A stretch of 64,000 nt of DNA from Capsulimonadaceae bacterium (GTDB lineage: Bacteria > Armatimonadota > Armatimonadia > Armatimonadales > Capsulimonadaceae): assembly GCA_031292625.1 (NCBI GenBank), contig JARLGU010000031.1, forward strand, positions 62,001 to 126,000, in the 5' to 3' direction. Shown in pieces: positions 8,714 to 24,695 of this stretch. How positions within the stretch are numbered: the stretch's first letter is position 1; every line of letters starts with the position of its first letter. Under the pieces are notes generated by a model, which did no database searches, was not told where the DNA came from, and was given only the letters and a program-made list of their open reading frames with translations. Both the position numbers and the translations under genes were made by a program.

Positions 8714-8949
8714 CTGCGGCAGGACTCCCCGCCGGGTTATTGCCGATCAGTGACTAGGCGGAAAGGCTGGCTGCTTATTCCGCGAACAAGCGAAGTCTCT
8801 GAACGGAGCAGCCCCTAATCAGTCCAATTCTCACAGATAGTAAAGTCCATAGAGAGTGTGTAACGATTCCACGCGGTCGCCGACGGGTTCAAACTCGTGG
8901 CGGAAGCGGAAGACATTCATTTCGCACGCTCCTAAAGAGATATATAACC

Positions 8950-9927
8950 ATGATGAAGCCTATCGCATTTGCCGCCCTCTTGGGCTGCGTACTGTTGTCC
9001 ACGTCCGCAATCGCTCAGACGACGGCGACGCCCGTCTCCGGGACGCCGGTGCGCCTCTGGGATGGTCCAGCGCCCGGCGCGCATGGCGACACGCCGTTTG
9101 ATATACCGACGCTCACGCCCTTCTTGCCGCAACCGTCCGCTGACGGCGCGCCGAGCGCGGCGATCGTCATCTGCCCCGGCGGCGGCTACGGCGGGTTATC
9201 CATGGAGCACGAAGGCACTGCGTACGCACAGTGGCTGAATATCCAGGGCATCGCGGGGTTCGTGCTGAAGTACCGGCTCGGCTCGCACGGATACCACAAC
9301 CCGGTGGAGCAGGAGGACGCCGACCGCGCCGTTCGCATGGTTCGCGCTAACGCAGCCCTCTGGCGCATTGATCCCAAGCGCGTCGGAATCATGGGCTCGT
9401 CGGCCGGCGGGCACCTTTCAGCGACCGTTCTTACGCACAACGATGGCGGGGATCCGAACGCGACGGATCCGATCGACCGCCAGAGCTGCCGCCCGGATCT
9501 CGGCATTTTGTGCTACCCGGTCATCACGCTGGCAGCGCCCTATGCGCATGTCGGCTCCCGCAACAACCTTCTTGGCGCGACTCCGTCCGCTGACGACATT
9601 ACCCTGCTTTCCGCGGAGCAACAGGTGACCGCGCAAACGCCGCCATCGTTCATTTGGTGCACGGCGGACGACAGGGCCGTACCGTCAATGAACAGCCTGC
9701 TTTTCGCCGAGGCTCTAGCAAAAAACAAAGTGCCGTACGTGCTGCACATCTATCCACACGGCCCGCACGGTCTTGGCCTCGGCGACGATCATCCACCGTT
9801 TGCGAAGGCCCTTCCGTGGGCTCAGGAGCTTGCGAGCTGGTTGCAGCTGTCCCATTTTGCGGCAGCCAACACGCCGGTTCCTCTCCCGGCGTCCGCCGCC
9901 GCGACGCCAACGCAAGCGGCGCATTGA
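8950..9927 (+). CDS. Secreted alpha/beta hydrolase (acetyl esterase/xylanase-associated type)
   Basis: This is a 325-residue exported esterase of the BD-FAE/acetyl esterase group that de-esterifies plant polysaccharides. A signal peptide ends near AIA-Q (residue 22-23). The oxyanion region PGGGYGGLS comes at about 76-84, the nucleophile Ser 151 in GSSAGG, an Asp in TADDRAVP, and the catalytic His in HGPHGLG. The C-terminus is an Ala/Pro/Thr-rich tail of about 25 residues, probably a linker or wall-proximal spacer. Two adjacent ATGs (8950, 8953) are possible; the upstream AAAGAGA is a weak ribosome site. It stands alone, followed by repeat-rich non-coding DNA. Confidence 0.88.
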   Translation: MMKPIAFAALLGCVLLSTSAIAQTTATPVSGTPVRLWDGPAPGAHGDTPFDIPTLTPFLPQPSADGAPSAAIVICPGGGYGGLSMEHEGTAYAQWLNIQGIAGFVLKYRLGSHGYHNPVEQEDADRAVRMVRANAALWRIDPKRVGIMGSSAGGHLSATVLTHNDGGDPNATDPIDRQSCRPDLGILCYPVITLAAPYAHVGSRNNLLGATPSADDITLLSAEQQVTAQTPPSFIWCTADDRAVPSMNSLLFAEALAKNKVPYVLHIYPHGPHGLGLGDDHPPFAKALPWAQELASWLQLSHFAAANTPVPLPASAAATPTQAAH

Positions 9928-9952
9928 GAGGGAGTGTGAAAGATCGAAAGGT

Positions 9953-10110
9953 CTTTTAAGACGGCTCCTCGGCCGCCGTGGCCGTTTTTGGAAAAGGGCC
10001 GGCGCAGCGCTTTCGTGACTTCGCGATGCATTCTGGGATCGGACGCTGGCGGCAAATGGCCGTGCGCGTGTCTACGCGGCCTTGCCGATCGACGCTGTGA
10101 ACGTGGCGTC
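9953..10110 (+). repeat. Dispersed repeat family 1, copy 1
   Basis: This stretch matches the reverse complement of about 53305-53480. Shared blocks in the same order are GACGGCTCCT, GCCGCCG, AAAAGGGCCG, CTTC-CGATG, TGGGATCGGACGC, GGCGG-AAA, and CGTGT--ACG. Between blocks the copies have drifted and carry small indels. No open frame is conserved between the copies, so it is a non-coding element, perhaps a miniature mobile element or a regulatory RNA relic. The boundaries are estimates by eye. Confidence 0.6.
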
Positions 10111-10243
10111 GCCAGCAAAGCCACTCGATCCTAGGCTGACCAAGGATGTCACCATACCGGCCCTAATCGGCTTGGTTGTCGTCTGCGCCATCATCGTTAT
10201 TTGGATTTCGATCGCCGTATCGAACCCCAACGGCCCGTTCTAG
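10097..10243 (+). CDS. Possible 48-residue single-span membrane protein
   Basis: A short frame starting with GTG at 10097 (alternative GTG at 10103 or TTG at 10082) encodes a hydrophilic head, one strong hydrophobic segment of about 23 residues (PALIGLVVVCAIIVIWISI) and a short polar tail ending in NPNGPF. The clean membrane segment is what argues for a real gene. Against it, there is no recognisable ribosome site and its first codons lie inside the end of repeat family 1. No function can be offered. Confidence 0.3.
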   Translation: MNVASPAKPLDPRLTKDVTIPALIGLVVVCAIIVIWISIAVSNPNGPF

Positions 10244-10274
10244 CGGCAGGCGAACCACCGCCGGCCTGGAATTC

Positions 10275-10320
10275 CTCGCGTTTCGGGAGGAAGGGGCCCG
10301 CGCAACGGGAAGGTAGGTTT
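10275..10320 (+). repeat. Dispersed repeat family 2, short copy A
   Basis: The core reads CTCGCGTTTCGGGAGGAAGG, then GGCCCG...CGGGAAGGTAGG, matching the 3' half of the longer copies at 19441, 21121 and 37944. Here no plus-strand gene start follows; the neighbour is the 3' end of a minus-strand gene. Confidence 0.55.
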
Positions 10321-10389
10321 CCCTCGCCCATCGGTAATGCGCGTGACGCGGACCTCCGGCTGTGCGGCTGGCTCCGCCGGAAACACCCC

Positions 10390-12657
10390 CTACCATCGCC
10401 GCACATAGTCGGACACGTCTCCCGTGTCCGGGTTTACCAGCATTACGACATTGTGGCGAACCAAACTCGTGCCGCTTACGGACGGCGAGTTTAAGATCAC
10501 TTTCACCGTGTAAGGGTAGGTCGTTTCACCAGCCTTTTTGATGTCCTCAATCGCTTCAAGAACCAAACGGTCGTCTGCATTCGTATCCCCCTGCGATCTA
10601 ACGAGGTAGGCCTGGATGGCTTTGACGCACTTGGCGGCGAGCTCGCCGGCGGGCGCTCTGGGCGGAAGCCGGCGCTGCCGGATGACATCGGCCTTGGTCT
10701 TCGCATCGTCGGCGGCGCTGGAGCCGGCGCTGCGGCTAAAATCGTCGGCCCGGGCGCGAGCGTCGGCCGCTTCGGCGGCAAGCCTCGAAGCCGTCGCATC
10801 GATCGTATCCGCGATGTGCTCGGCTTCTGACGCGCTGGAGCGAGCAAGGCGGGCCTGCGGAAGTGCCGCATCGTTCAGTTTCGCCTGGTCCTCCGCTTCC
10901 TGCGCAGCGGCGTCGGCGTCGCGCTTGGCCAACGCCGCCGCGACCGACGAGTTCTTCGCTTGGGCCGCCAAATGTTCCGCGGCATCGGCCTTCTCGGCGG
11001 CGGCGCGCGCCTGGCGCTCCAGGATCGCCTTTTGGCTGGTTTCAAAAGCATCCGCCTCAAGCCGGTCGAGAAGGTTGTCGATTCTATCCAAGAAGGTTTG
11101 CGAATTCGGGGACTGATGGGCCTCCAGGATCGCGGCCGCGACACGCGCCCGTTCGAGAGCGGCGTTCGCGCGCTTTGCGGCGGCGGCGGCAACCGGGACG
11201 GCCTGATCGACAAGCGCATTGACGACGTGCACCGGCACGGCGGCGCTCACATATTGGCGTCCCTGCGCATCGGTCGCCTTAACCGACGCCAGATGGTAGC
11301 CGCTCGCGCACAGATTCAGGTTGGCGTTGACCGAGTACGGGGGCGCGGACGCGGATCCGACCTCATGGCCGTCGATTAGATATGAAACGTTCACCGGAAC
11401 AAAGCCGTGTGCGACCGAGCAGTCCAGATCCACCGGCGCGCCATCCAGGTTGACCTTCACGACCGGCGACATGTTGGCAAGCGCGATCCGCGCGGGTATC
11501 GTCAGAATCCGCGTTCGCTGATAGGTCGCGTTATCCGCGCTTCTGGCAACGAGAGTAACCGCGACCTTGCCGGATGGATATGGAGCAAGCGATACAACGG
11601 CATCGAACGGGCGGCTTGTCGAACGGGCGACCTGCTGACCGTTGATCAGGTAGGTTACCCCGGTGACTTGGAATCCGGTATCCGCGGGCGCCTCGATCCC
11701 CAGAGCGAGATCGTCGAGCGTCTCATCGGGCAACTCCCTGAACGACACCGGAGGGGATAGCGAGACGATCACGTGAAGACGCCTCGCTTGGATATAATCG
11801 CCTGTAGGCCTATTGACGCGGATATTGATTCGATTGTCCCCGACTTGCCGATCAGTCGGCGACCAGATGAACGAATAATCGCCGCTCGAATAGCCCACGG
11901 GCGCCGTGGCGGCGACCTGAGAGTTGACGAGCAGGGCAAAGTTCGTCGCGTCCGCGCTCAGGGGCGCACGGCCCGAGAACTGCAAGACATCGTCTTGAGC
12001 GCAGTAGACTATGTCGTCCGCCGGATTGACGACGACCACGTTGGAGTAGACGTTGATCTGTTTCGTCCTCTGAAAATGCGCGCCGTCGACGCTGGTTGCG
12101 CGAAACGAGAGGAAGTGAGGTCCTGTCGGTTTCGTGCGCAACGGAATGTGGGCCATGAACGGAGCTTGCCCGGTGTGCGTAACGAATTGGCCATCAACAT
12201 AGAAGTCGACGGCGGAGAGATGGAAGTCGGACTGCGGATCGGTCGCAACGTTAATATCAGCGTCATCGGCGCACGCCTCTGGAAGATTCGTAAAAATCAC
12301 GGGATCCGTCATTGAAACGAGCGCGCGCACCTGCCGGACCGTGGCGTACCCCGCATCCATCAGGAAGCCGCCGCTGGACCGAGACTCGCCGACAGTGAGC
12401 GGATAGTCGCCGGCCGTCTGAGGAGTCCATCGGAACTCAAACTTATCGCTCTGCGAGGTGTCCCCGTCGACGTCCAGCACATACGACGAGCGCGCGTGCG
12501 TCGGACCGCGCAGGATGAGCGTGTCGCCGGCCACCAGGTAGACCACGGTCTCTTCCGGCCCGAGCTCAACCGTGTCCGCCCGCAAGATCCCGCCGGACCA
12601 GTATGCCGCCGCCATGATGACCGTCGCGAGCAACGCGATACGCCTGATTATTCTCAT
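10390..12657 (-). CDS. Large exported protein: Ig-like repeats plus Ala-rich coiled coil
   Basis: No function is recognised. The 755-residue protein opens with a basic N-terminus and a hydrophobic segment (LLATVIMAAAYW) that acts as signal or anchor. About residues 30-500 are beta-rich with at least three Big_7-like Ig repeats, seen as V-(D/T/S)-(F/Y)-(Y/L)-(V/I)-(D/N)-G followed by a PF or PY. About 500-690 is a very Ala/Glu/Asp/Arg-rich coiled coil. A small C-terminal domain of about 80 residues follows, ending in a strand-like PDTGDVSDYVRRW that resembles TonB-C or PepSY-like modules only loosely. The start is the ATG at 12657 with AGGAA 9 bases upstream; the longer frame to 12759 adds unlike sequence. 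An envelope structural or adhesive role is possible. Confidence 0.75.
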   Translation of the reverse strand: MRIIRRIALLATVIMAAAYWSGGILRADTVELGPEETVVYLVAGDTLILRGPTHARSSYVLDVDGDTSQSDKFEFRWTPQTAGDYPLTVGESRSSGGFLMDAGYATVRQVRALVSMTDPVIFTNLPEACADDADINVATDPQSDFHLSAVDFYVDGQFVTHTGQAPFMAHIPLRTKPTGPHFLSFRATSVDGAHFQRTKQINVYSNVVVVNPADDIVYCAQDDVLQFSGRAPLSADATNFALLVNSQVAATAPVGYSSGDYSFIWSPTDRQVGDNRINIRVNRPTGDYIQARRLHVIVSLSPPVSFRELPDETLDDLALGIEAPADTGFQVTGVTYLINGQQVARSTSRPFDAVVSLAPYPSGKVAVTLVARSADNATYQRTRILTIPARIALANMSPVVKVNLDGAPVDLDCSVAHGFVPVNVSYLIDGHEVGSASAPPYSVNANLNLCASGYHLASVKATDAQGRQYVSAAVPVHVVNALVDQAVPVAAAAAKRANAALERARVAAAILEAHQSPNSQTFLDRIDNLLDRLEADAFETSQKAILERQARAAAEKADAAEHLAAQAKNSSVAAALAKRDADAAAQEAEDQAKLNDAALPQARLARSSASEAEHIADTIDATASRLAAEAADARARADDFSRSAGSSAADDAKTKADVIRQRRLPPRAPAGELAAKCVKAIQAYLVRSQGDTNADDRLVLEAIEDIKKAGETTYPYTVKVILNSPSVSGTSLVRHNVVMLVNPDTGDVSDYVRRW

Positions 12658-13110
12658 TTCGTTGCGATTCCTTTCGAGCGCCGCCCAAGCCCAGCAGGAC
12701 CGCCGCAGCTCAAGGCACGCGGCGGGCGCGCACCGCCCTTTGCCGCTTTGCCGTGTCACTCAACGGCTTCGCTCAAGAACGGCAAGCTCTCCCAGCCAAA
12801 AAATTCGCGAAAATACCGCTCCGGGAGCGCCGAAGCCGCCTTCTGTTTCCATACCACTCGATTATGCGCCATATCTCGCTGTTCCTCCAAGACTGGCTTA
12901 CAGGTTTGGTGTCGATTTTCTTACACGCACAAATAAAATTGCGCACGAGTGCGCCTTCGCCGGATGGCCGCAGCCATCCGGCGAGCTCAACGGCTCGATA
13001 CAGGCCCCAATCGGACAGGCGCAAGGACATTGCGCCAGACGATCCGCTGCGATGTATAATGAAAGGCATCGATCCGTGCCAAGGCGCGACGGCGGGTCGT
13101 AGGAGACACC
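12658..13110. other. Divergent intergenic region
   Basis: This 453-base spacer separates two oppositely transcribed genes for exported proteins. A TATAAT at 13055-13060, preceded by TG, is a plausible -10 for the rightward gene; its best -35 (TTGCGC at 13030) is poor and 19 bases away. AGGAG near 13099 serves as ribosome site for the ATG at 13111. I see no gene here. Confidence 0.4.
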
Positions 13111-14022
13111 ATGTCCATTAAACGCCTCTGCGCGGGCATCGCGGCGCTCGCATCGTGTGCGACCTCCGGAATTTGCTTGGCGTCCGGCACAACCGCCTCA
13201 GTCGCGGCTGCATCCGCCATGACCGCGGCAAGCACGCCGCAACCAGCGACGCCAGCAGCCTCCGTCGATGCACAGCTAGCAGCCGCTCGCAAGGCAATTG
13301 TCGAACGCGACGCGGTCATCGCGCGCCTGCGGACTCTGCTCACGGACCGCGACGATATTATCGCGAAGCTCCTCGCGGAAATCCGTTCGCCCGCTCAAGC
13401 TCTGTCAACCAAATCAGTCGCGTCAGCTTCCGCAGCGCCATCGCCGCCCGCTGCTTTACCCGCAGAAACTGCGCAGCTCGGCCAGAACCTGCCGCCGCCG
13501 CCAGCCGGAGTCGCAACATCGATCGCGACGGTTCCAGCCATCCCTTTCGGCGGCCAGGTCGAGATCCACGGCGACGCGTTCTTCAGCGCGCTCGGGATCA
13601 AGGACTTTACCGTCATCCGTGTTGACAATGACCGGGATAGTCCGATTGCCTTCACGCCACAGGTCCGCGTCGTCTGCCGCGATGGCAGCAAGCAGCCCGC
13701 TGAGTTCATCCAGGCCAGCGCCTCTTATGACGCCATCGACCCGCGCACGACCGACGAACGGACAATAGAGGCCAAAACGTTGCGCCACGATGCCCAGGGC
13801 GATTTTTCTGACCATAAATACGACATTAAGAGCCCCGAGGATATGGTCGTGCCGCCGCGATCCACCGTCTATTTCAAAATCTCCTATGTCGATGTCGTGC
13901 AGAACCACCCTCTGCGCATCGAGTTCACTGGCGCAACGCTCGACGGATACGCGCTGGCGTATCCCGGACCGCACACTGGCCCGTACGCCCTAACGTTGGT
14001 AAAGATAGGCGGCGCCTTGTAG
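13111..14022 (+). CDS. Exported protein with short coiled coil and beta-rich C-terminal domain
   Basis: No family is recognised. The 303-residue protein has a signal peptide (about 1-25). An Ala/Thr-rich segment follows, then a heptad-patterned coiled coil at about 58-95 (repeated R-D-x-I-I/V-A-x-L). A Pro/Ala-rich linker comes next, and then a C-terminal domain of about 150 residues with alternating strands (GQVEIHGDAFF, PQVRVVCRDGS, YFKISYVDVV). The tail domain resembles small extracellular beta folds but has no catalytic signature. AGGAG precedes the ATG. The divergent partner also encodes an exported protein with a coiled coil, so the two may act together at the envelope; that is inference. 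Confidence 0.7.
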   Translation: MSIKRLCAGIAALASCATSGICLASGTTASVAAASAMTAASTPQPATPAASVDAQLAAARKAIVERDAVIARLRTLLTDRDDIIAKLLAEIRSPAQALSTKSVASASAAPSPPAALPAETAQLGQNLPPPPAGVATSIATVPAIPFGGQVEIHGDAFFSALGIKDFTVIRVDNDRDSPIAFTPQVRVVCRDGSKQPAEFIQASASYDAIDPRTTDERTIEAKTLRHDAQGDFSDHKYDIKSPEDMVVPPRSTVYFKISYVDVVQNHPLRIEFTGATLDGYALAYPGPHTGPYALTLVKIGGAL

Positions 14023-14253
14023 CGCCGCTCGAGCCGTCGCCTGACTGAGGCTTCCGATCATCACCTCCCTGGCGAACGTGGCGGCGCTCTTCCGACTCGC
14101 GTCTCCAATTCTCGCGAATTCGCCGTCTTTTGAAACACATAACGTTCATTCGACAGTGCTTAAAGTTTGTCTGCTTCGTGTTATTTTTTCATGTAATCAT
14201 CCAATTGGCGGATGACAAGTTTGAGAAAATTATCACGAATGGCCGTCACATCC

Positions 14254-14283
14254 TTGACACGTCTTCAGGCGATCGGTTAATAT
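14254..14283 (+). promoter_or_regulatory. Sigma-70-type promoter of the respiratory island
   Basis: TTGACA at 14254-14259 is followed after 18 bases by TAATAT (14278-14283), or after 17 by TTAATA. This is the best promoter-like sequence ahead of the ten-gene respiratory run, about 70 bases before the first start codon. The 100 bases upstream are noticeably AT-rich compared with the surroundings. The rest of 14023-14351 shows no gene. Confidence 0.6.
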
Positions 14284-14351
14284 AGGGGACACTATCGAGC
14301 GCTTAGAGGCTCGTTTTGCATGGACGTTGTCCATGGAAAGCCGTGCGTGAT

Positions 14352-14516
14352 ATGGGATTGGACCCGGGAACAGCGTATGCGGTCGTCGTTGGCGTCATCG
14401 TCGGCACCCTGGTTCTTGGCGTCTTCGTCTGGGGAGCGGCGAGCGGGGCCTTTGAAGAGACGGAAGACGCGAAGTACATCTTGTTTCGCGATGAAGATGA
14501 CGATGAGCGCGATTAG
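14352..14516 (+). CDS. CcoS-like cbb3 oxidase maturation protein
   Basis: This is a 54-residue protein with one membrane span (about 9-31) followed by a short acidic tail. The pattern W-x-x-x-SG-x-F-(E/D)-(E/D)-x-(E/D) then an ILF and a run of Asp/Glu matches the small CcoS family, which is needed for cofactor insertion into cbb3-type oxidase. It is far too short to classify by fold, so the assignment rests on this motif plus the CcoN, CcoO and CcoI genes on the same strand. The ATG at 14352 is chosen over an earlier ATG (14316) because it leaves only the conserved core. Confidence 0.6.
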   Translation: MGLDPGTAYAVVVGVIVGTLVLGVFVWGAASGAFEETEDAKYILFRDEDDDERD

Positions 14517-14590
14517 GCGAAGCAATTACAATGTAAGCCTGGCTGGTCAGAATGGCAGAAACTCAATGACCGGCTGACGGGCGGCAATTT

Positions 14591-15067
14591 ATGTCCATTA
14601 ACTACGAGCGGGAAAAACAGGAACTCACGCGGCGAAACTTCGTCTCCCTGTCAGGGTGGTCCATCTTTACGCTGGGGCTACTGGGTGCAGGCGGCCTGTT
14701 TGCGCGATTCTTCTGGCCCAACGTCCGCTACGGTCCGCCATCAAAGTTCAGCATCGGCAAGCCGGGCAACTATCCCGACGGCGCTCAGCAGACTTTTATC
14801 GACCAGAAGGTTTCAGTCATCCGGCATGGGAGCAACATCGGCGCGATATCGCTCGTCTGCAAGCACCTTGGCTGCACGGTTGCGCCGTCGGCGACCGGGT
14901 ACGACTGCCCCTGCCACGGAAGCAAATACGACGCCATCGGGCAGGTGACGCACGGGCCGGCGCAGGCAAACCTGGACTGGTTCGGCATTAGTCTTCTGCC
15001 GAGCGGCGACCTGCAGGTCGACAAGAGCGACATTCGCACGGTGAGTGCCTACTACGGCGTCAAGTAG
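14591..15067 (+). CDS. Rieske iron-sulfur protein of a cytochrome bc complex
   Basis: The protein carries the [2Fe-2S] cluster that takes electrons from quinol in the bc complex. At 158 residues it is typical of the b6f/Bacillus-type subunit. A twin-arginine motif (RRNFVSLS) precedes the single N-terminal anchor (about 23-42). Box I is CKHLGC (ligands Cys 90, His 92) and box II CPCHGS (ligands Cys 106, His 109); Cys 95 and Cys 108 should form the usual disulfide. It is followed by both cytochrome b pieces, as in Gram-positive qcrABC order. Confidence 0.95.
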   Translation: MSINYEREKQELTRRNFVSLSGWSIFTLGLLGAGGLFARFFWPNVRYGPPSKFSIGKPGNYPDGAQQTFIDQKVSVIRHGSNIGAISLVCKHLGCTVAPSATGYDCPCHGSKYDAIGQVTHGPAQANLDWFGISLLPSGDLQVDKSDIRTVSAYYGVK

Positions 15068-15097
15068 GCGCGGCACAGGGGAGAGCGTCCATCCGTC

Positions 15098-15979
<882 letters not shown>

Positions 15980-15983
15980 AGCT

Positions 15984-16529
15984 ATGGCAAAGAGGGTGCG
16001 CGAGGAAGAGATTTTTCCTCGAAATCCAAACAAAACTTACGGTCTGATGGAGCTCGTCAAGGGCTCGTCGCCTCGCGTCGATCGCGGTCCCGAAGATATG
16101 GTTTCCGCGTGGCCGCATCTGCTGATCCGCGAGGCTCTGCTGTTCGCGGCGACGTTCCTGGTGATCCTCGCGCTGTCCGTATGGTGCGTCCCGCCGCTTG
16201 AAAAGCAGGCCGACGCCACGAAACCGCCCAATCCGGCGAAGGCGCCATGGTACTTCCTGGGGCTGCAGGAATTGGTGTCGTACGACGCGTTCTGGGGCGG
16301 CCTGGGCATTCCGGGCCTCGTGATCGTTGGGCTGATGGCGATTCCGTATCTAGACCGCCATCACTCGGGGATCGGGCGCTGGTTTGCGCGAAGCCGTACG
16401 ACCGCCGTTACGCTGTTTACCGTGCTGTTCGTAATTCCGACGATCGTGTTGATCATTTTGGGGACATACTTCCGCGGCCCGAACTGGGGCTTTTATCCGC
16501 CCTGGGGGATGCCGGTCGAGCCGCAATAA
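15984..16529 (+). CDS. Cytochrome b, C-terminal part (PetD/subunit IV-like)
   Basis: This 181-residue protein carries the last three helices of cytochrome b as a separate chain, the arrangement of b6f-type complexes. The diagnostic block is [17 protein letters not shown] (the PEWY-equivalent region at the quinol site, here with APWYF). The start at ATG 15984 is supported by GGAG 10 bases upstream and near-contact with the previous stop; an upstream ATG at 15942 would overlap the cytochrome b gene. Confidence 0.9.
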
Positions 16530-16721
16530 CGGCATGCCGGGCAAGCGGTTGGCATGAAAACCTTGGGGTGGCCGACTGCCGTCTTGTACCTGCCTTCTCG
16601 CAACCGCAGGTGTCCGGGCGCACCGGCTGGTGCGGCGTTTCGCGGGACGGCTGGGCGAGCGTTCTTTGTAATTGTTTCGGAGCAAGGCGAGCACGATATA
16701 TTGCCGCCAAGAACACTAGAT

Positions 16722-18368
16722 ATGTCATCATTTGAACCCAGGATATCGATCATAACGAAGTTCGTGCTCTGGAGCGTCGTGCTGCTGGGTTTGACGATCT
16801 ACGTTGTGGCGCGGTCGACCTGGAACAACCAGGACCAGCCGACGCATGACTACATCTACTGGCAAGACCACTACAAAACCGTCGCGGCCAGTCTCACCAG
16901 CGATCCCGAAGTTCGAAAGGCGACTCTGGCTACCCCGGAAACGGTCAATCAGGTCACCGTGCTTCAGTTCCCCTTCATGCAGGCGGATGGCGCCAACCAG
17001 CAGCGCGTCGACCGTTGCCAATCGTGTCACGTCGGCCTGGAAAACCCGTCGATGACCGCGGAGAACATCGTTCGCGCGCTGACGAAGGGCAAAGAGAATC
17101 TCTCGCCGGATCAGCTCGCCGCATTTCTGCGGAAGCCGGAAAATCGGGAGATTTACACGGCCGTCAAGGTTCTTTCCGCGCACCCTGGCAAGACCGGCGG
17201 TTTGGTGAAGTCCACCTTGCCGTATGCGCTCGCCGCCGGATCGAGCCCGGACATCGCGAGCGCCGCGTCGCTCGCCGCTCTGACGCGCACGATGGCGTCG
17301 CATTCCTTCGCGACCTACGGCTGCACGACATGCCACTACGGCTCCGGGCGCGAGCTGCAGGAGCGCAAGGCCCACGCGACCACGAACGAAGCATGGCTGC
17401 AGCCTCTGATGCCCGCCAAGTACATGGATGCCGCCTGCGCACAGTGCCACACGAGCAATAACCCCAAGACAGGCACGTCTGCGTATTTGGAGCAGATGCG
17501 CACGATCGCCCGCGGCCAAAGCCTGTTCAAGAGCAACGCCTGCTGGGGCTGCCACAAGGTCGATGGATTCTCGAAGGGCAACGTCGGACCGGAACTGACG
17601 AATGAGGGCCGCATCGTGAGGTCCGAGACCATCGAGCATCAGCTCTGGGATCCGCGCTACAAGGTGAACAACTGCGTGATGCCCTACTTCTTCTCGCGCA
17701 AGATCATCACGGATTTCGACGCGCAGGGCAAGCCGCACGACTACTACCTGAATGATTATGGCGACAAGCGGCCGCTGAGCGAACTTGCGGTCGCTCAGAT
17801 TGCGAACCCGGATATCCGGGAGTCGCTGACCGCTCATGGGTATGTGCCCGATGCGCGCGCGGTCAACGATGTCGACGCGCTGACCACTTATCTTCTTGCA
17901 CAAACAGGATCGAGCTACTCGGAGAGCCAGGGCCAGCGGATCGCCCGCATCGCCGCCTACAACGCGCAGATGCCGCTGGAGGTTCCGAAGACGATCGACG
18001 AAGGCCGGCTCATATTCGAGCAAAGCGGCTGCTATTCGTGCCACTACGTAGGCGATGCCAAGAATCCGCGAAACGGCAAGGGCGGCGGAGTTGGTCCCAA
18101 TCTTTCGTGGGAAGGATCACGGCACAGCTACCAGTGGATCGAAGAGCACTACCGCAACCCGCAGGAGTTCGTGCCCAAGTCGATCATGCCGATCTTCCCG
18201 TTCTCGGACTCGCAGCGCGCGGCGCTGACCTTGTTTGATGCATCGCGGCTGGCCCCGGGGTCGCGTCCCGTGTCCGCCGATCAGGATATGGCCCCGGAAC
18301 GCTATCCGGCGGGCAAGGCGGTCACGAACAAGACGCCCAACCCGCAGCTTCGGTATATGACGCGCTAG
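16722..18368 (+). CDS. Five-heme membrane-anchored cytochrome c
   Basis: This is a 548-residue cytochrome with an N-terminal anchor (about 10-30) and five CxxCH heme sites: CQSCH at 99, CTTCH at 201, CAQCH at 239, CWGCH at 274 and CYSCH at 437. The last heme lies in a class-I-like domain (IFEQSGCYSCHYVG, then a GPNLSWEG loop). It sits directly after the cytochrome b genes, where cytochrome c1 would be in a proteobacterial operon, so it is the likely electron acceptor from the Rieske protein. The start at 16722 begins just before the anchor; an upstream ATG at 16554 adds an unlikely Arg/Cys-rich stretch. The 190 bases before it hold no other gene. Confidence 0.88.
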   Translation: MSSFEPRISIITKFVLWSVVLLGLTIYVVARSTWNNQDQPTHDYIYWQDHYKTVAASLTSDPEVRKATLATPETVNQVTVLQFPFMQADGANQQRVDRCQSCHVGLENPSMTAENIVRALTKGKENLSPDQLAAFLRKPENREIYTAVKVLSAHPGKTGGLVKSTLPYALAAGSSPDIASAASLAALTRTMASHSFATYGCTTCHYGSGRELQERKAHATTNEAWLQPLMPAKYMDAACAQCHTSNNPKTGTSAYLEQMRTIARGQSLFKSNACWGCHKVDGFSKGNVGPELTNEGRIVRSETIEHQLWDPRYKVNNCVMPYFFSRKIITDFDAQGKPHDYYLNDYGDKRPLSELAVAQIANPDIRESLTAHGYVPDARAVNDVDALTTYLLAQTGSSYSESQGQRIARIAAYNAQMPLEVPKTIDEGRLIFEQSGCYSCHYVGDAKNPRNGKGGGVGPNLSWEGSRHSYQWIEEHYRNPQEFVPKSIMPIFPFSDSQRAALTLFDASRLAPGSRPVSADQDMAPERYPAGKAVTNKTPNPQLRYMTR

Positions 18369-18427
18369 CGGGAGGATATCGCCTAGCGCAGCACAAGCGA
18401 ACGCGGCCGGCGATGGGAGAAACGTGA

Positions 18428-19384
18428 ATGGCTGATGAATCGAAAGAAACGCACGTCGAGAAAACGACTACCGAGATTGACGAAGTGCAGAGCTTCGGCG
18501 GAGGCGATATAACGTCCGTCGAACCCGTCGCCGAGGTGCACGAGGAGTTTCATCACTACTCGGGCGGGCAAATCGTCGAGCACTCGAATACGACGCTCAG
18601 CCCGTGGCTATGGGGCTTCTGGGGCACCGTGATCGTCGTCATCCTTGGCGTCGTGCTCGCTTATGGCGCGGTTCCCGGTTTCCACGTCGGCGAGACGCAC
18701 TATCCGTACAATCCCGAGCGCACCGCGAACGGCTATATGGCGGTGCAGAAAGAGATGACATCGGTCATCACGACCATGCCGCCGACCGATCAGGCGTATG
18801 TCTCGATGGCGTCGCTCAACACGGCAATCGGCGGAGGCAAGAGCCTGCAGGCCAACATCGATGCCGGGCAGGACCTGTACCAGCACTACTGTATCGGCTG
18901 CCACGGCCCAAATCAGGACGGGGCCGGTCCCAACGCAGTTAACCTGAACCCGGCGCCGCGCAATTTGCGCAACGCGCCGTTCATGCAGGCGATGTCCCTC
19001 CAGCGGATCGAAACTTCCGTGCACAAGGGCGTTCCCGGCACCGCGATGCCGCGCTGGGAAAATACGCTGACCGACGAGCAGATCAACGAGGCCATTATCT
19101 ACGTGCTCAGCCTTTCCGCGCCCGTCGACGACAAGGGCAATTTCATGGACCCGCTCTCCGGAGCAGGCTCGCCGTCCGCATCGCCATCGGGCCCGACCGG
19201 CGGGCCGTCGGCCGACAAGATCCATTCCGCCGCGATATCGATGACGCATTCCAGCGTCCCGCCAGTCACGGCGACGTTCAAGGCAGGCGCGGGCAACCAG
19301 CCGGCAACCGCGCTAACGCAGCCGCAAGCGCCCTCTGGGCAGGTGGGGTCGCCTCCGCCAGCTGCGCCAGCGCCGAAGCTGTGA
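18428..19384 (+). CDS. Membrane-anchored monoheme cytochrome c
   Basis: This 318-residue protein has an acidic N-terminal cytosolic segment (1-58), one membrane helix (about 60-82), and a cytochrome c domain with CIGCH at 155-159. A probable Met axial ligand lies in PGTAMPRW. The C-terminal tail of about 80 residues is rich in Pro, Ser, Ala and Gly. The N-terminal topology recalls CcoP, but only one heme site is present where CcoP has two. In context it may hand electrons from the five-heme cytochrome to CcoO/CcoN. Confidence 0.85.
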   Translation: MADESKETHVEKTTTEIDEVQSFGGGDITSVEPVAEVHEEFHHYSGGQIVEHSNTTLSPWLWGFWGTVIVVILGVVLAYGAVPGFHVGETHYPYNPERTANGYMAVQKEMTSVITTMPPTDQAYVSMASLNTAIGGGKSLQANIDAGQDLYQHYCIGCHGPNQDGAGPNAVNLNPAPRNLRNAPFMQAMSLQRIETSVHKGVPGTAMPRWENTLTDEQINEAIIYVLSLSAPVDDKGNFMDPLSGAGSPSASPSGPTGGPSADKIHSAAISMTHSSVPPVTATFKAGAGNQPATALTQPQAPSGQVGSPPPAAPAPKL

Positions 19385-19440
19385 GTTAGGATGCCTCCGG
19401 CGGGCTCTGCGCGGGGAGCGGCGGCGTGACGCCGCACCCA

Positions 19441-19537
19441 ATGCGCTCTTCCGGGCGGTACAGCGTGTCGTTCGTAAGCGTTGAGTTTCTCCCGTTTCGG
19501 GAGGCAGGAGCCCCGAGCTTGTCGAGGGGAAGGTGGG
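19441..19537 (+). repeat. Dispersed repeat family 2, copy B (ahead of ccoN)
   Basis: The element begins with TGCGCTCTTCCGGGCGG and ends with CTCCCGTTTCGGGAGG, AGGAGCCCCG and GGGGAAGGTGGG. CTCCCG/CGGGAG and CCCC/GGGG can pair as two small hairpins. Its terminal AAGGTGGG lies 5 bases before the ATG of ccoN and probably serves as the ribosome site. Confidence 0.65.
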
Positions 19538-19541
19538 TTAC

Positions 19542-21050
19542 ATGGCAGTCCAACAGATCGCGCAAATTAGCTCCAATCCGGTTGGAGAGCGAATCGATCA
19601 CGATGACGATGCAGCCAAGTGGTGGATGACCGTGGCGCTGTTCAATGTCGTCGTCTTCGGAACGTTTGGCCTGATTGCGGCGGTGAAGATGGTTATGCCG
19701 GGACTGTTCGCGGGAGTAAGCTGGCTTGCCTGGCCCCGTATCCGCCCCGCGCACGTCAACGGCGTCGTGTTCGGCTGGCTCGTTCCGATGTCGATTGCGA
19801 TGTTCCACTATTTCATCCCGCGTCTCTCCGGCGCTAAGCTCTACGGAACGCGGATTTCGCAAATCGCCCTGTGCATCTGGGAGACCGGCGTGATCGTCGC
19901 AACCCTCGGGCTGCTGAACCCGTGGGGGGGCGAGTTGCAAGCCGGATCGCTCAACCCCTGGTGGATGACCAAGGGGAAGGAATGGGAAGACTACAACGCG
20001 ATATCGAACATCATCATCACGGTCGCGCTGTTGATGGTGGATTATGTCATCTTTCGCACGATCGCACAGCGACGCTACCGGCAGATCTATGTCGCCACCT
20101 GGTACGCAGTCGGCACCTTGCTCTGGACATCGCTTGTATACGTGGTCGGCAACTGGCCCGGGCAGGCGATCGACTGGACGCTGCATACCTATTTCGGCTG
20201 GGATGCGCTCCCGCACTTTGGATTTACCGGGTCGAACGACGCCAATGTCAACTGGTTCTACGGCCACAGCATCGTCGGCCTCGTCGCGACCCCCGGCGGC
20301 ATTGCGCTCGCATACTACTTCCTGCCGAAGTCGATCAACGCGCCATTGTATAGTCACAAGCTGAGCATCATCGGCTTCTGGACGCTGGGCGCGATCTATT
20401 TCTGGGTGGGCGCGCACCACATGATCTACGGTCCGATCCCGTACTGGCTGCAGACGGTGGCGACCGTGTTCTCGTTCCTGCTGTTCATTCCGGTTGCGGC
20501 GGCTGTAATCAACTTCCTGGGCACGTCGCGCGGCGAGTGGCATCAGCTCAGAAACAACGTCGTATTCAAGTTCTTCATTGCCGGTACGGTGATGTATTTC
20601 CTCGTCTCGACCCAGGGCTCGTTCGAGGCGCTGCGCCCCGTGCAGGCAATCGTCCACTTTACCGATTACACGGTTGGCCACGCGCACCTTGCGCTGTTCG
20701 GCTTCGCTACGATGTTCGCGTTCGGCGCGGCGCTTTACGCGGCCCCGCGCATGTGGAAGCGTCCGCTGTACTCCGAAGGGATCGCCGAGTGGTCGTTCTG
20801 GCTGGCGTTTATCGGCATCACCATCTATGTCGTTTCGCTGACGGCTGCCGGCATCTACCAGGGCAAGCTTTGGATGGACTACCCGCACCTGCCGTTTATC
20901 GAAACGGTCGTCGCGATGGTGCCGTTCTGGCACGCGCGAGCCGGCGGAGGTGCGATGATGGTCGCCAGCATGGTCCTGGTCGCATTCAACGTGTATAAGA
21001 CCGCGACGTCGCCCGCGCCTGCTGAAACGCGCGTCGCGGCAAAGGCGTGA
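19542..21050 (+). CDS. ccoN: cbb3-type cytochrome c oxidase subunit I
   Basis: This is the catalytic subunit, which reduces oxygen to water and pumps protons. It has 502 residues and about 12 helices. Ligands visible are His 71 and His 382 (low-spin heme b), His 380 (heme b3), and His 242 plus His 292/His 293 (CuB). Tyr 286 is 44 residues after His 242, the spacing of the His-Tyr cross-link that defines C-family oxidases. There is no NorB-type glutamate pattern at the CuB site, so it is an oxidase and not NO reductase. The start at ATG 19542 follows AAGGTGG. Confidence 0.95.
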   Translation: MAVQQIAQISSNPVGERIDHDDDAAKWWMTVALFNVVVFGTFGLIAAVKMVMPGLFAGVSWLAWPRIRPAHVNGVVFGWLVPMSIAMFHYFIPRLSGAKLYGTRISQIALCIWETGVIVATLGLLNPWGGELQAGSLNPWWMTKGKEWEDYNAISNIIITVALLMVDYVIFRTIAQRRYRQIYVATWYAVGTLLWTSLVYVVGNWPGQAIDWTLHTYFGWDALPHFGFTGSNDANVNWFYGHSIVGLVATPGGIALAYYFLPKSINAPLYSHKLSIIGFWTLGAIYFWVGAHHMIYGPIPYWLQTVATVFSFLLFIPVAAAVINFLGTSRGEWHQLRNNVVFKFFIAGTVMYFLVSTQGSFEALRPVQAIVHFTDYTVGHAHLALFGFATMFAFGAALYAAPRMWKRPLYSEGIAEWSFWLAFIGITIYVVSLTAAGIYQGKLWMDYPHLPFIETVVAMVPFWHARAGGGAMMVASMVLVAFNVYKTATSPAPAETRVAAKA

Positions 21051-21120
21051 TAGGGGATGAGAAGAGCGCTTGCCGCGCTGGCAGCCTTCCGGGCTGGGGC
21101 CAACGTTCCGTTGGATCCTA

Positions 21121-21202
21121 TGCGCGCTTCCGCGTGGCACTACGCTGGATTTCGCTATTCGTAAGCTCTCCCGTTTCGGGAGGAAGGAGCCCGGTCGAGG
21201 GC
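21121..21202 (+). repeat. Dispersed repeat family 2, copy C (ahead of ccoO)
   Basis: TGCGCGCTTCCGCG opens the element, TTCGTAAGC follows, and CTCCCGTTTCGGGAGGAAGG, AGCCCGG and CGAGGG close it, all in the same order as copies B and D. The ATG of ccoO is 26 bases beyond the end. Confidence 0.65.
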
Positions 21203-21228
21203 AGCCTAGAAGCGTCAGGGATAACTAA

Positions 21229-21954
21229 ATGGCAAAGCCAAAAGCTGAACAATCCGTTCTATGGCTCGGGATCTTCGCATCGCTAACGATGGTCACGGCG
21301 CTCGTATTCACCGCGATTTTCCCGTCATACAACAATCGTTGGAGCACGAATACCGTCGACGGCGCGAAGTACTTCCGCGCGGTCCGCGCCGACACCGGGA
21401 CGGGGTACTCAAAGCTGGAAGAAGAGGGCCGGTTGGTCTACCAGCGAGAGGGTTGCATGTACTGTCACACCCAGCAGGTGCGCCCGTTGCGCACGGAAAT
21501 GATCCGTTACGGGATCCACCACTCGCCCGCGCCGCCAGCGGATGAGCGGGAGGGGATCTACGACGAGCCGCATTTCCTTGGCACCAAGCGCAACGGCCCC
21601 GATCTCTCTCGCGTTGGCGGCAAGTACAGCGACGACTGGCAGTTCTCGCATCTCTACAACCCGCAGCAAATGGTTCCTGGCTCGATCATGCCAGCGTTTA
21701 CGTGGCTGTTCAGCAACGCGAACCCGGCCGATCCGAGCATGGCCCCGGTTCCGTCGCACGAGTGCGTCGCGCTGGTCGCCTATCTGCAAAGCCTGGGAGC
21801 GGACCGGATGATTTGGGATCCCGCGCTCAACGGCGGCAAAGGCGGCTACCGGCCGTGGCTTCTGCCGCAGGACAAACAAAACAGCCTCGCGGAGTCGCAA
21901 GCGGCTTTGATGAACGCCGCGAAGCCGATTCACGCGCCGCGCGTTTCGCAGTAG
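21229..21954 (+). CDS. ccoO: cbb3-type cytochrome c oxidase monoheme subunit II
   Basis: CcoO passes electrons to CcoN. It has 241 residues: an N-terminal anchor (about 10-31), CMYCH heme site at 76-80 inside the family block EGRLVYQREGC, then RPLRTE, GTKRNGPDLSRVGG and YNPQQMVPGSIMPAF, where the Met is the probable axial ligand. Length and motifs fit the family well. The gene is separated from ccoN by a family 2 repeat, and 11 bases separate it from the next small gene. Confidence 0.95.
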   Translation: MAKPKAEQSVLWLGIFASLTMVTALVFTAIFPSYNNRWSTNTVDGAKYFRAVRADTGTGYSKLEEEGRLVYQREGCMYCHTQQVRPLRTEMIRYGIHHSPAPPADEREGIYDEPHFLGTKRNGPDLSRVGGKYSDDWQFSHLYNPQQMVPGSIMPAFTWLFSNANPADPSMAPVPSHECVALVAYLQSLGADRMIWDPALNGGKGGYRPWLLPQDKQNSLAESQAALMNAAKPIHAPRVSQ

Positions 21955-21965
21955 GAGGCACGCAA

Positions 21966-22187
21966 ATGGCCCGCACCTGGAGCTACCGAAAGCGCGAGAT
22001 CGTCATAAACGAAGTTCACCCGCGCGGAGTCCCCGCAGCCGCCGTCGCAATGATCGCGTTCGGCATCGTCATGATTGCGACCGTCCTCGGGTTCACCGTG
22101 TACGCTACCGAACACCAAGCCCCGGAGCCGGTGATAGTCGGTCTGCACAGCGACAGCTATCGGACGCAAGCGCCGGGCGGCAAGTAA
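21966..22187 (+). CDS. Small one-span membrane protein of the oxidase locus
   Basis: A 73-residue protein with a strong AGGAGG ribosome site 7 bases before the ATG. It has a basic N-terminus (about 1-20), one membrane helix (about 24-46) and a short polar tail. It occupies the ccoQ position between ccoO and the copper ATPase gene. Its sequence does not show an obvious CcoQ or CcoH signature, so I name it only by location. Confidence 0.7.
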   Translation: MARTWSYRKREIVINEVHPRGVPAAAVAMIAFGIVMIATVLGFTVYATEHQAPEPVIVGLHSDSYRTQAPGGK

Positions 22188-22220
22188 CGTACCCAGCCGG
22201 GACCGCGGGAGGCATCCTAA

Positions 22221-24695
22221 ATAGGCCTATTCAGTGAGAAGCAGTCTTCGCTAACCGTAACAAACGATGCCGCCGCGCTGACCTGTTGCCTTTGCGGCTT
22301 GCCCGCGCGCGCGCCGGTCATTGTCATCGCCGGCGGCAGCGAGCGCATTTTCTGTTGTCACGGTTGCCGAAACGTCTTCCAAATCCTCAACGCAAGCGGC
22401 GCGCTCGCGCCCGGCAACGATCCCACTTCCTCCGCGATCTACCAGCAGGCCCGGGATCTCGGCCTAATTGGCAATGCTGCGCCAGCCGGCGTCTCTCCGG
22501 TCGCGTCGCCCGATTCGATGCCCATCGAACTCTCACACGAAGGCGGAGCGGTCAACGATCAGCGCCAGTGTGTCCTGCGCATCGATGATATGTGGTGCTC
22601 GTCGTGCGCCTGGCTCATTCAGCACGCTCTTCTTCGGCGGCATGGCGTATCAGGAGCGGACGTTTCGTTCGCATCGGACACCGCGCGCGTCACGTATCGT
22701 CCCGCCCGCATCGGTCCCGATGAGTTGGCGGCGACGGTGCGTTCGCTGGGCTACCATGTGCGCCCCCTCAGCGAGGCGGATGGCACGGGAGAGCGCGCTC
22801 GTCACCGCCGGGCGGGACTGATCCGGGCCTCGCTCACGTTTCTGTTCGCAATGAACGTGATGATGTTCCAGATCGCCCAGTACGCCGGTTACCAGGGAGC
22901 GGCATTCCTATGGATCCTTCTAACGCTCACCACGGTCGTCATGGCGCTTGCCTTTCCGATCTTTCACCGGGCGTTCCAGGCGGCGCGATTGGGCCACGCC
23001 ACCATGGAGACGCTCGTCAGTCTCGGATCCCTGACGGCATACGCTTACTCGATCCAGCAAGTGCTCACCGGCGGGCGGCATGTCTATTTCGATACTGCGA
23101 GCATGCTCGTCGCGCTTGTGACGGTTGGCAAGTTTATCGAGAGCGGCGTCAGGGCGAGCACGATCGATGCATTGAGCATGCTGCATGGTCTCTTGCCGCG
23201 AAAAGCGTGCGTCCTCAACGAGAATTCGGAAGAGCGATTGGTCTCGATCGAGCGGCTGGAGCCAGGCAACGTCGTGCGTGTTCGGCCTGGAGAGCGAATT
23301 GCGGCGGACGGCGTTGTCGCGAATGGAGCGGCTGACGTGGACGAGAGCCTGATGTCCGGGGAGTCGCGACCGGTCGCCAAGACAACCGGCGACGCCGTGA
23401 CCGGCGGGACGATCGTGCAGGGCGGCGCGCTCGATGTCCGCATTACGCGGGTCGGCGCGGACGGCGCCCTGGCGCGCATGATCGCCGTCGTCGACGAAGC
23501 TCTGCGGCGCAGAACGATCTCGGAGCAGCGGGCGGACAAGATTAGCCGCGTATTCGTTCCCGTGATCGTCATCCTCGCCGCCGCGACTGTCTTTGCGATG
23601 CTGGCCGGAGGACACGCGCTCTCCGAAGCGATTCCGCGCGCCGTCGCCGTGCTCGTAATCGCGTGCCCTTGCGCCTTGGGGATAGCGACGCCGCTCGCGA
23701 TCAGCGCGGCCGTCGGCGCGGCGGCGCGCAAGGGCATTATCGTCGCGGATCCCTCCGTGTTCGAGAAGCTTGGATTAATCCGCGCGCTCGTATTTGACAA
23801 AACTGGCACGCTGACCGAAGGACGTTTTGCCGTTCACTGCCTCATGCCGTCAGACGCCGATGCGGCCCCGCTGGTCGCGCTTGAAAGGCTTTCCGAGCAC
23901 CCGTTGGGTCGAGCGATAACGCGGTGGGCAACGGAAGGCGAGCCGGAGAACGTCTCCAGATTCGAGGCCGTCGCCGGAGCCGGGGTTCGAGGAATCGTTC
24001 GTGGCGCATCATGGTTTGCCGGGAATGCGCGTCTCGTTGCAAATCTTGGCGGCGGCATTCCGGAGAACTTGGCGGCGGAAGCGAACCGCCTGCAGGCGGA
24101 AGGTCTGAGCGTCGTTTATTGGGGTAGGGATGGGCGGGAGGTGACTGGCCTAATAGCCCTTGGGGACAGAATCAGGCCGGGCGCGGCAGACCTGGCGGGA
24201 GCGCTCTCGGCGCGAGGAATCACGACGCACATGGTGAGCGGCGACGCCGGGGAAACGGTTCGGGCAGCGGCGCAAGCGCTTGGAATCGAAACGTGGCAGG
24301 CGCAGGCGTCTCCCAGCGAAAAGGCTCAGTGGATCGACGACGTGCGCGGCGGCTTGCCGTCCGGCGCGTTGGTGGGCATGGTTGGGGACGGCGTCAACGA
24401 TGCTCCTTCGTTGGCGCGGTCGGACGTTGGCATTGCGATGGCGACCGGCGCGGAACTGGCGTCGCGCGCCGCGCATGTGACGCTGCTCTCAACGGATCCG
24501 CGCCGCATCCGGGAGCTAATCGATCTCGCGAAAAAGGCGACTCGGATCATCCGCCAGAACCTGTTTTGGGCCTGTGCGTACAACCTGGTCTGCGTTCCGC
24601 TTGCGATGCTCGGTTACGTCCAGCCTGTCTGGGCAGCCGTTGCGATGATCGTGTCCAGTTTTACCGTGATCGTCAACGCGCGCCGGGCCGCTTAA
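22221..24695 (+). CDS. ccoI: Copper-translocating P-type ATPase of cbb3 oxidase assembly (CcoI-type)
   Basis: The protein supplies copper for CcoN. The N-terminus has a Cys-rich CCLCGLP...FCCHGC segment, then an HMA-like domain with CSSC. Six or more helices follow, with CPC in the transport helix (ACPCALGIATP). Further on are the actuator loop, the phosphorylation site DKTGTLTEG and the hinge GDGVNDAP. The start is unusual. The conserved first Cys pair lies upstream of the TTG at 22299, and the only in-frame codon with a good ribosome site (GGGAGG, 8-base spacing) is ATA at 22221, directly after a stop. CTG at 22278 is the other option. The gene ends 11 bases from the convergent heptose kinase gene. 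Confidence 0.9.
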   Translation: MGLFSEKQSSLTVTNDAAALTCCLCGLPARAPVIVIAGGSERIFCCHGCRNVFQILNASGALAPGNDPTSSAIYQQARDLGLIGNAAPAGVSPVASPDSMPIELSHEGGAVNDQRQCVLRIDDMWCSSCAWLIQHALLRRHGVSGADVSFASDTARVTYRPARIGPDELAATVRSLGYHVRPLSEADGTGERARHRRAGLIRASLTFLFAMNVMMFQIAQYAGYQGAAFLWILLTLTTVVMALAFPIFHRAFQAARLGHATMETLVSLGSLTAYAYSIQQVLTGGRHVYFDTASMLVALVTVGKFIESGVRASTIDALSMLHGLLPRKACVLNENSEERLVSIERLEPGNVVRVRPGERIAADGVVANGAADVDESLMSGESRPVAKTTGDAVTGGTIVQGGALDVRITRVGADGALARMIAVVDEALRRRTISEQRADKISRVFVPVIVILAAATVFAMLAGGHALSEAIPRAVAVLVIACPCALGIATPLAISAAVGAAARKGIIVADPSVFEKLGLIRALVFDKTGTLTEGRFAVHCLMPSDADAAPLVALERLSEHPLGRAITRWATEGEPENVSRFEAVAGAGVRGIVRGASWFAGNARLVANLGGGIPENLAAEANRLQAEGLSVVYWGRDGREVTGLIALGDRIRPGAADLAGALSARGITTHMVSGDAGETVRAAAQALGIETWQAQASPSEKAQWIDDVRGGLPSGALVGMVGDGVNDAPSLARSDVGIAMATGAELASRAAHVTLLSTDPRRIRELIDLAKKATRIIRQNLFWACAYNLVCVPLAMLGYVQPVWAAVAMIVSSFTVIVNARRAA

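What the first reader, a model, noticed from the sequence alone, without database searches (positions are those of the whole stretch)
14254..24695. Single-strand island joining a b6-type bc complex, two unusual c cytochromes and a cbb3 oxidase lacking CcoP
One promoter-led run encodes a CcoS-like protein, Rieske, split cytochrome b (15-residue heme spacing, PetD-like second half), a five-heme anchored cytochrome c in the c1 position, a one-heme anchored cytochrome c, CcoN, CcoO, a small membrane protein and CcoI. CcoP, CcoG and CcoH are missing. The order suggests quinol-to-oxygen transfer through dedicated cytochromes, possibly a bc-cbb3 supercomplex in which the five-heme and one-heme proteins replace c1 and CcoP. 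The genes are seen; the supercomplex is inference.
Basis: partly seen in the sequence, partly recalled or inferred. Interest (0 to 1): 0.72.

Follow-up and report, generated by a model that had tools for sequence, protein, structure and literature searches.

The report
Linked bc–cbb3 respiratory gene island
A bacterium of the phylum Armatimonadota keeps the genes for its quinol-oxidising complex and its only haem-copper oxygen-reducing enzyme in one block, joined by a five-haem and a one-haem membrane-anchored cytochrome that probably act as a dedicated wire between them; the parts are variants of known kinds, but the fixed combination is unusual and testable.

Summary
Ten same-strand genes (14.3–24.7 kb) encode CcoS, Rieske, split b6-type cytochrome b, a five-haem anchored cytochrome c (c5), a one-haem anchored cytochrome c, CcoN, CcoO, a small one-helix protein and CcoI. 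The genome (Armatimonadota, Capsulimonas-type family; 96% complete) has no other haem-copper oxidase, no FixP_N-type CcoP and no CcoG. The core order is kept in all seven family genomes and in one genome of another family. Three corrections to the interpretation: (1) the one-haem protein is probably a shortened CcoP, aligning collinearly with CcoP; (2) CcoG loss is specific to this genome, since four relatives keep it inside the island; (3) cbb3 oxidases without a diheme CcoP are usual in this phylum, and split-b bc complexes with 5–8-haem cytochromes are widespread there and known from Nitrospina, Kuenenia and Geobacter. Distinctive is the stable joining of the two modules. The last c5 domain is closest to CcoO. 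Best reading: a dedicated menaquinol-to-oxygen chain in which c5 (c1 position) and the one-haem CcoP-like subunit carry electrons with little need of a soluble carrier. A stable supercomplex is plausible but undemonstrated. New variant of a known kind.

The parts
14352..14516 (+). CcoS-like assembly protein (start 14352 or 14343; reading frame open from 14316)
   Evidence: FixS PF03597 23.9 bits; TIGR00847 E 1.9e-5, below cut-off; same small gene with 'GAFE..EDAKYI.FRDEDDD' before Rieske in the family genomes
14591..15067 (+). Rieske [2Fe-2S] protein of the bc complex
   Evidence: PF00355 43.5 bits; CKHLGC...CPCHG
15098..15979 (+). Cytochrome b, N-terminal half (b6/ExtP-like, extended N-terminus, His pairs 14 and 15 apart)
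   Evidence: PF13631/PF00033, ExtP 258.7 bits of cut-off 290; alignment A1
15984..16529 (+). Cytochrome b, C-terminal half (PetD/ExtQ-like), Qo motif APWY instead of PEWY
   Evidence: PF00032 22.1 bits, ExtQ E 3e-21; motif in relatives
16722..18368 (+). c5: one N-terminal helix, hemes 1-3 in a c7-like part, hemes 4 and 5 in two class I c domains, the last CcoO-like
   Evidence: five CXXCH conserved in 8/8 orthologues; PF14522, PF13442, PF00034, PF02433; best solved-structure matches are CcoO chains
18428..19384 (+). One-heme, one-helix cytochrome c, probably a shortened CcoP; Pro/Ser-rich tail
   Evidence: TIGR00782 ccoP residues 34-231 on profile 6-194, E 3.6e-9, below cut-off; hhalign to CcoP 98.4% whole, 77% for the N-terminus alone
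19542..21050 (+). CcoN, catalytic subunit of a C-family heme-copper oxidase
   Evidence: PF00115 E 2e-81; TIGR00780 ccoN 290.9 bits, below cut-off 583; heme, CuB and helix VII Tyr positions kept
21229..21954 (+). CcoO, one-heme subunit
   Evidence: FixO PF02433 E 1e-42; CMYCH plus invariant Met154
21966..22187 (+). Small one-helix protein, in the CcoH/CcoQ position, family unassigned
   Evidence: orthologue in L026 (E 1e-12), similar small genes in L027, L028 between ccoG and ccoI; no Pfam family over cut-off
22278..24695 (+). CcoI-like copper P1B-type ATPase; the listed TTG start at 22299 drops the conserved CCLCG motif, a CTG at 22278 would keep it
   Evidence: TIGR01511/TIGR01525 over cut-off; upstream reading; 47% to L026 orthologue
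14254..14283 (+). sigma-70-like promoter match TTGACA-18-TAATAT, not above chance

Best explanation
The island encodes a dedicated menaquinol:oxygen respiratory chain. Rieske plus the split cytochrome b oxidise menaquinol by a Q cycle; the low-potential electron goes back through the b hemes. The Rieske electron passes to c5, which sits in the c1 position and works as a short multihaem wire; from its CcoO-like end, or through the one-heme CcoP-like protein, it reaches CcoO and then the b/b3-CuB site of CcoN, which reduces oxygen. CcoS and CcoI serve oxidase assembly (copper delivery). Shown: genes, order, conservation, cofactor motifs, lack of another heme-copper oxidase in this genome. Inferred: the electron route, menaquinol as donor, and physical contact between the complexes.
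For: Order Rieske-cytb-petD-c5-one-heme-ccoN kept in 7/7 family genomes and G087, ccoO following in all whose contig continues. One COX1-family gene in the genome. All ligands of a C-family oxidase, the Rieske motif and five CXXCH conserved. c-type hemes elsewhere in the genome only in two larger membrane proteins, so no obvious soluble carrier. The last c5 domain matches the CcoO heme domain (98.3%; PDB), the one-heme protein matches CcoP. Menaquinone made by the futalosine route is likely (two MqnA/D-type genes). In the engineered Rhodobacter complex the gap between heme c1 and the nearest CcoP heme is about 51 A and needs a moving carrier (PMC7876108), the kind of gap a multihaem subunit could bridge.
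Against: No biochemical data. AlphaFold models of c5 and the one-heme protein were poor (pLDDT 48 and 45), so heme distances are unknown. Related multihaem bc complexes in the phylum lack any adjacent oxidase or sit near an A-type one, so c5-like proteins do not by themselves imply a cbb3 partner. Genome is a draft, 96.4% complete, and divergent small cytochromes c can escape Pfam. A true bd oxidase and a second bc cluster offer parallel routes.
Confidence: 0.72

Rival explanations
1. The two complexes are separate in the membrane. The one-heme protein, with its linker and long Pro/Ser-rich tail, is a tethered shuttle of the cytochrome cy type that swings between them, and c5 is only an enlarged c1.
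For: One helix, a long linker before the heme domain and a long tail in the one-heme protein; cy-type tethered carriers serve cbb3 in Rhodobacter (PMC7876108).
Against: Its N-terminus resembles that of CcoP (77%, P 2e-5) whereas eight control segments from the island gave at most 1.2%, which favours an oxidase subunit rather than a shuttle.
Confidence: 0.3
2. c5 passes electrons to or from another periplasmic or extracellular partner (nitrogen oxide, metal), as proposed for multihaem bc complexes of anammox bacteria and Geobacter, and its place beside cco is mainly regulatory.
For: Comparable architecture in Geobacter (PMC2825233) and Kuenenia/Nitrospina (PMC3578206, PMC12954380); many relatives have the multihaem bc complex without an adjacent oxidase.
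Against: No reductase or outer-membrane cytochrome gene in the island; orthologous c5 always beside ccoN; CcoO-like last domain.
Confidence: 0.15
3. An ordinary pairing: the genes were brought together by chance or for co-expression and form no special complex.
For: Both halves have relatives that live apart; bc and cbb3 genes came together separately in G045 (L157).
Against: Order kept across considerable divergence (CcoN 53-69% identity; c5 31-55%); repeated joining of bc and cbb3 genes suggests selection.
Confidence: 0.25

Closest known systems
Split-b Rieske/cytochrome b complexes with multihaem cytochrome c (Nitrospina gracilis and Kuenenia octaheme type), and the multihaem bc cluster of Geobacter (GSU2930-2937)
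   Same: Rieske, b6-like cytochrome b (split with subunit IV in Nitrospina), multihaem c in the c1 position (PMC3578206, PMC12954380, PMC2825233)
   Different: Here five hemes in a c7-like plus two class I arrangement with a CcoO-like end, and direct linkage to a cbb3 oxidase; no Cys for heme cn/ci before residue 150 of cytochrome b
cbb3 (C-family) oxidases, CcoNOQP type of Proteobacteria
   Same: CcoN ligands, one-heme CcoO, CcoS and CcoI; related CcoP-like N-terminus
   Different: Only about 30-36% CcoN identity to plasmid-borne examples; one-heme CcoP-like protein encoded before ccoN; the Glu of the 'FEGP' segment is Gln in the island clade; separate clade
cbb3 oxidases without diheme CcoP (Sinorhizobium meliloti pSymA ccoN + three-heme ccoO; Paraburkholderia fungorum ccoN-ccoO-one-heme c-P-type ATPase; Nitrospina fused subunits)
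   Same: No canonical CcoP gene; c hemes redistributed between CcoO and small cytochromes (PMC3578206)
   Different: No bc genes beside them in the stretches read
Armatimonadota cbb3 clusters linked to an alternative-complex-III-like module (five-heme c, Fe-S, NrfD-type)
   Same: Same phylum; G001-G005 carry such a second cbb3-type oxidase
   Different: Two-heme CcoO, no bc complex, separate FixP_N-like small protein in some; absent from the window's genome
Engineered Rhodobacter capsulatus bc1-cbb3 supercomplex; obligate actinobacterial bcc-aa3 supercomplex
   Same: III-IV electron transfer through membrane-bound cytochromes c (PMC7876108, PMC8361435)
   Different: Those use c1 plus cy, or diheme QcrC plus CuA; no multihaem bridge; in Rhodobacter the pet and cco genes are not in one block (own knowledge)

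Membership tests
C-family (cbb3) heme-copper oxidase | CcoN with two heme b/b3 His sets, three CuB His and a helix VII Tyr | tested here: met
   H71, H242, Y286, H292/H293, H380, H382 invariant in A4 and aligned with Rhizobium and Variovorax CcoN
C-family (cbb3) heme-copper oxidase | One-heme CcoO | tested here: met
   FixO E 1e-42, one CXXCH, invariant Met
C-family (cbb3) heme-copper oxidase, NOQP subtype | Diheme CcoP | tested here: not met
   One CXXCH in the candidate; no FixP_N match at threshold anywhere in the genome
CcoP/FixP | FixP_N membrane segment followed by c domain | tested here: inconclusive
   FixP_N 9.3 bits, cut-off 24.9; TIGR00782 36.3 bits, cut-off 179.95; hhalign N-terminus 77%, controls 0.1-1.2%
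Rieske/cytochrome b complex, b6 type | Split cytochrome b, second His pair 15 residues apart | tested here: met
Rieske/cytochrome b complex, b6f/heliobacterial type | Cys near N-terminus for covalent heme ci/cn | tested here: not met
   No Cys before residue 150 in the window protein; none invariant there
Rieske/cytochrome b complex | PEWY-type Qo motif | tested here: inconclusive
   APWY in the island and related complexes; that variants of this motif exist is from memory, the paper is not held
Multihaem bc complexes | Multihaem c encoded directly after the split cytochrome b | tested here: met
   Five CXXCH in 8/8 orthologues; 5-8 hemes in related clusters
III-IV supercomplex | Physical association of the two complexes | not testable with these tools
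   Needs protein work; single-chain models too poor

The most novel reading that the evidence does not exclude
The island encodes a native, obligate bc-cbb3 supercomplex without a diffusing carrier, in which the five-heme subunit is a fixed wire from the Rieske site to CcoO and a one-heme CcoP completes the oxidase: a third architectural solution beside cytochrome cy and the actinobacterial bcc-aa3.
Probability: 0.35. Interest if true: 0.75.

Novelty: new variant of a known kind. Interest (0 to 1): 0.5.

Why it matters
Native bc-cbb3 supercomplexes have been low in abundance and unstable, so the known structures come from an engineered fusion (PMC7876108). A lineage that holds both complexes and their cytochromes in one gene block, with members that have no other heme-copper oxidase, gives a natural system in which carrier-free transfer between complex III and a cbb3 oxidase can be tested. 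It also shows how c hemes have been reshuffled among the c1, CcoO and CcoP positions.

Tried and rejected
AlphaFold2 models of c5 (A6) and the one-heme protein (A7) had pLDDT 48 and 45; no fold search was made on them. Small FixP_N hits in G001-G004 were at first taken for separate CcoP genes; reading the stretches showed about 100-aa proteins beside an alternative-complex-III-like cluster, and a second cbb3-type oxidase in several of those genomes, absent from the window's genome. Strict absence of CcoP and of CcoG as defining features of the island was rejected. FixH search: hits in the own genome lie elsewhere, so the small gene could not be called CcoH. Rfam found nothing in 13-26 kb. Promoter match not above chance. 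Literature searches for this arrangement in Armatimonadota found none, in an open-licence library only; three specialist papers on Qo motifs, cbb3 evolution and bd diversity were not held.
Full report
Where it is. The window is part of contig 60 of a 5.77 Mb draft genome, 96.4% complete. Its nearest orthologues lie in contigs titled Armatimonadetes bacterium and Capsulimonas sp., so the organism belongs to Armatimonadota, in the family of Capsulimonas. This is inferred from record titles; the genome itself is unnamed.

The observation. Coordinates are in the parts list. Gene gaps are 4-192 bp. The b6-type spacing, the Rieske motif, the five and one CXXCH motifs and the oxidase ligands were checked directly. 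A promoter-like hexamer pair sits exactly at 14254, but such matches are expected by chance, so a single transcript is not shown.

Whole genome. There is one COX1-family gene, the island's ccoN, one true CydA (C25) and one CydA-like protein with a c domain at C19. There are two cytochrome b genes, the island's and one at C19. Cytochrome c domains (PF00034, PF13442) occur only in c5, the one-heme protein, a 287-aa DUF2231 protein and the C19 protein. FixP_N gives no match, CcoG only a short ferredoxin-like fragment, FixH two matches far from the island. Menaquinone genes of the futalosine route appear present (the family also holds related proteins).

Conservation. A c5 search found orthologues in all six other family members and none in twelve order-mates of the neighbouring family. 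Rieske, cytb, petD, c5, one-heme c and ccoN are adjacent and in this order in all seven family genomes and in G087 of a different family; ccoO follows wherever the contig goes on (G004's contig ends after ccoN). A ccoS-like gene precedes Rieske in the family genomes. In G001, G003, G005 and G087 a complete ccoG (427-459 aa; FixG_C domain in the two scanned) and a small one-helix gene lie between ccoO and ccoI. In G002 and G006 ccoG and ccoI are not beside ccoO. Thus CcoG was lost from the window's island, not from the system. A whole-collection scan with the cytochrome b profile returned only six loci, all of them islands; its patterns were strict, so this does not show absence elsewhere.

The one-heme cytochrome. 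TIGR00782 (ccoP) covers residues 34-231 collinearly with profile 6-194, E 3.6e-9, but far below the curated cut-off. The profile of eight orthologues matches solved CcoP chains, in 8smr and 6xkw from the membrane segment through the first heme domain. Against five named CcoP proteins, hhalign gives 98.4% for the whole and 77% (P 2e-5) for the part before the heme domain alone; eight control segments (c5, CcoO, cytochrome b and CcoN pieces) gave at most 1.2%. I take it as a probable one-heme CcoP, status inconclusive by curated thresholds.

The five-heme cytochrome. All five motifs are kept in eight orthologues. Hemes 1-3 fall in a c7-like part, hemes 4 and 5 in class I domains. Domain 5 matches the CcoO heme domain at 98.3%, more than any CcoP domain, and CcoO chains are the top solved structures. 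Invariant Met320 and Met489 fit His/Met hemes 4 and 5; invariant His194 and His218 are candidate extra ligands for the first three (inference).

The cytochrome b part. It is closest to ExtP/ExtQ models, below their cut-offs. It has no N-terminal Cys for heme ci and carries APWY at the Qo motif, as do related complexes in the phylum.

The oxidase. The island CcoN proteins form one clade (100/99) apart from Proteobacterial NOQP enzymes and from the other cbb3 enzymes of the phylum (the places of the long S. meliloti and P. fungorum branches are unsure). The Glu of the NOQP 'FEGP' segment is Gln.

Context in the phylum. Among 291 genomes, 18 further loci encode cytochrome b of the same group (over 270 bits); nearly all are followed by a cytochrome c with 5-8 hemes, none of the fetched stretches showed a cbb3 gene, and two (G042, G055) lie near an A-type COX1. 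Other cbb3 clusters of the phylum mostly have a two-heme CcoO, no diheme CcoP, and a five-heme cytochrome with Fe-S and NrfD-type genes nearby. G045 joins ccoN-ccoO to a diheme c, Rieske and an undivided cytochrome b, an independent bc-cbb3 linkage. Cbb3 operons without diheme CcoP also occur in named Proteobacteria.

Literature. Split-b bc complexes with multihaem c are described for Nitrospina and Kuenenia (PMC3578206, PMC12954380) and a multihaem bc cluster for Geobacter (PMC2825233). In the engineered Rhodobacter bc1-cbb3 complex heme c1 and the nearest CcoP heme are about 51 A apart and a mobile tethered cytochrome is proposed to carry the electron (PMC7876108). No paper on this arrangement in Armatimonadota was found, in an open-licence library only.

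Verdict. The module is a new variant of a known kind: known parts, an uncommon fixed combination, and two modified cytochromes. Function as a menaquinol-to-oxygen chain is likely; a supercomplex is possible and testable.

Noticed in passing
G000:C19, L035:3512-7870: A second Rieske and undivided cytochrome b are followed by a 471-aa protein joining a CydA-like domain to a c domain, preceded by a 394-aa membrane protein without a Pfam family: a possible bc/bd-like electron-transfer cluster.
   Followed up: partly
window 22250-22310: No ATG, GTG or TTG start lies upstream of the conserved CCLCG motif of CcoI; the TTG at 22299 would drop it. A CTG start (22278) or a sequence problem is possible.
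   Followed up: partly
L157 (G045:C31), 7946-14259: Independent linkage of ccoN and a two-heme ccoO with a diheme c, Rieske and undivided cytochrome b in another Armatimonadota family.
   Followed up: partly
L061/L162 (G002:C1, 7.08-7.10 Mb) and L158-L161: Relatives in the family carry a second cbb3-type oxidase with two-heme CcoO; in G002 it lies near an alternative-complex-III-like cluster with a five-heme c7-type cytochrome and a FixP_N-like small protein.
   Followed up: partly
L034:7922-8785 (G000:C10): 287-aa membrane protein with a DUF2231 domain and a cytochrome c domain resembling the last c5 domain (26%).
   Followed up: no
L065:8205-8429 (S. meliloti pSymA): A 74-aa 'hypothetical' protein beside the ccoNO pair has a 'DYAGG' segment before its helix like that of the one-heme cytochrome, possibly a detached CcoP anchor.
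   Followed up: no
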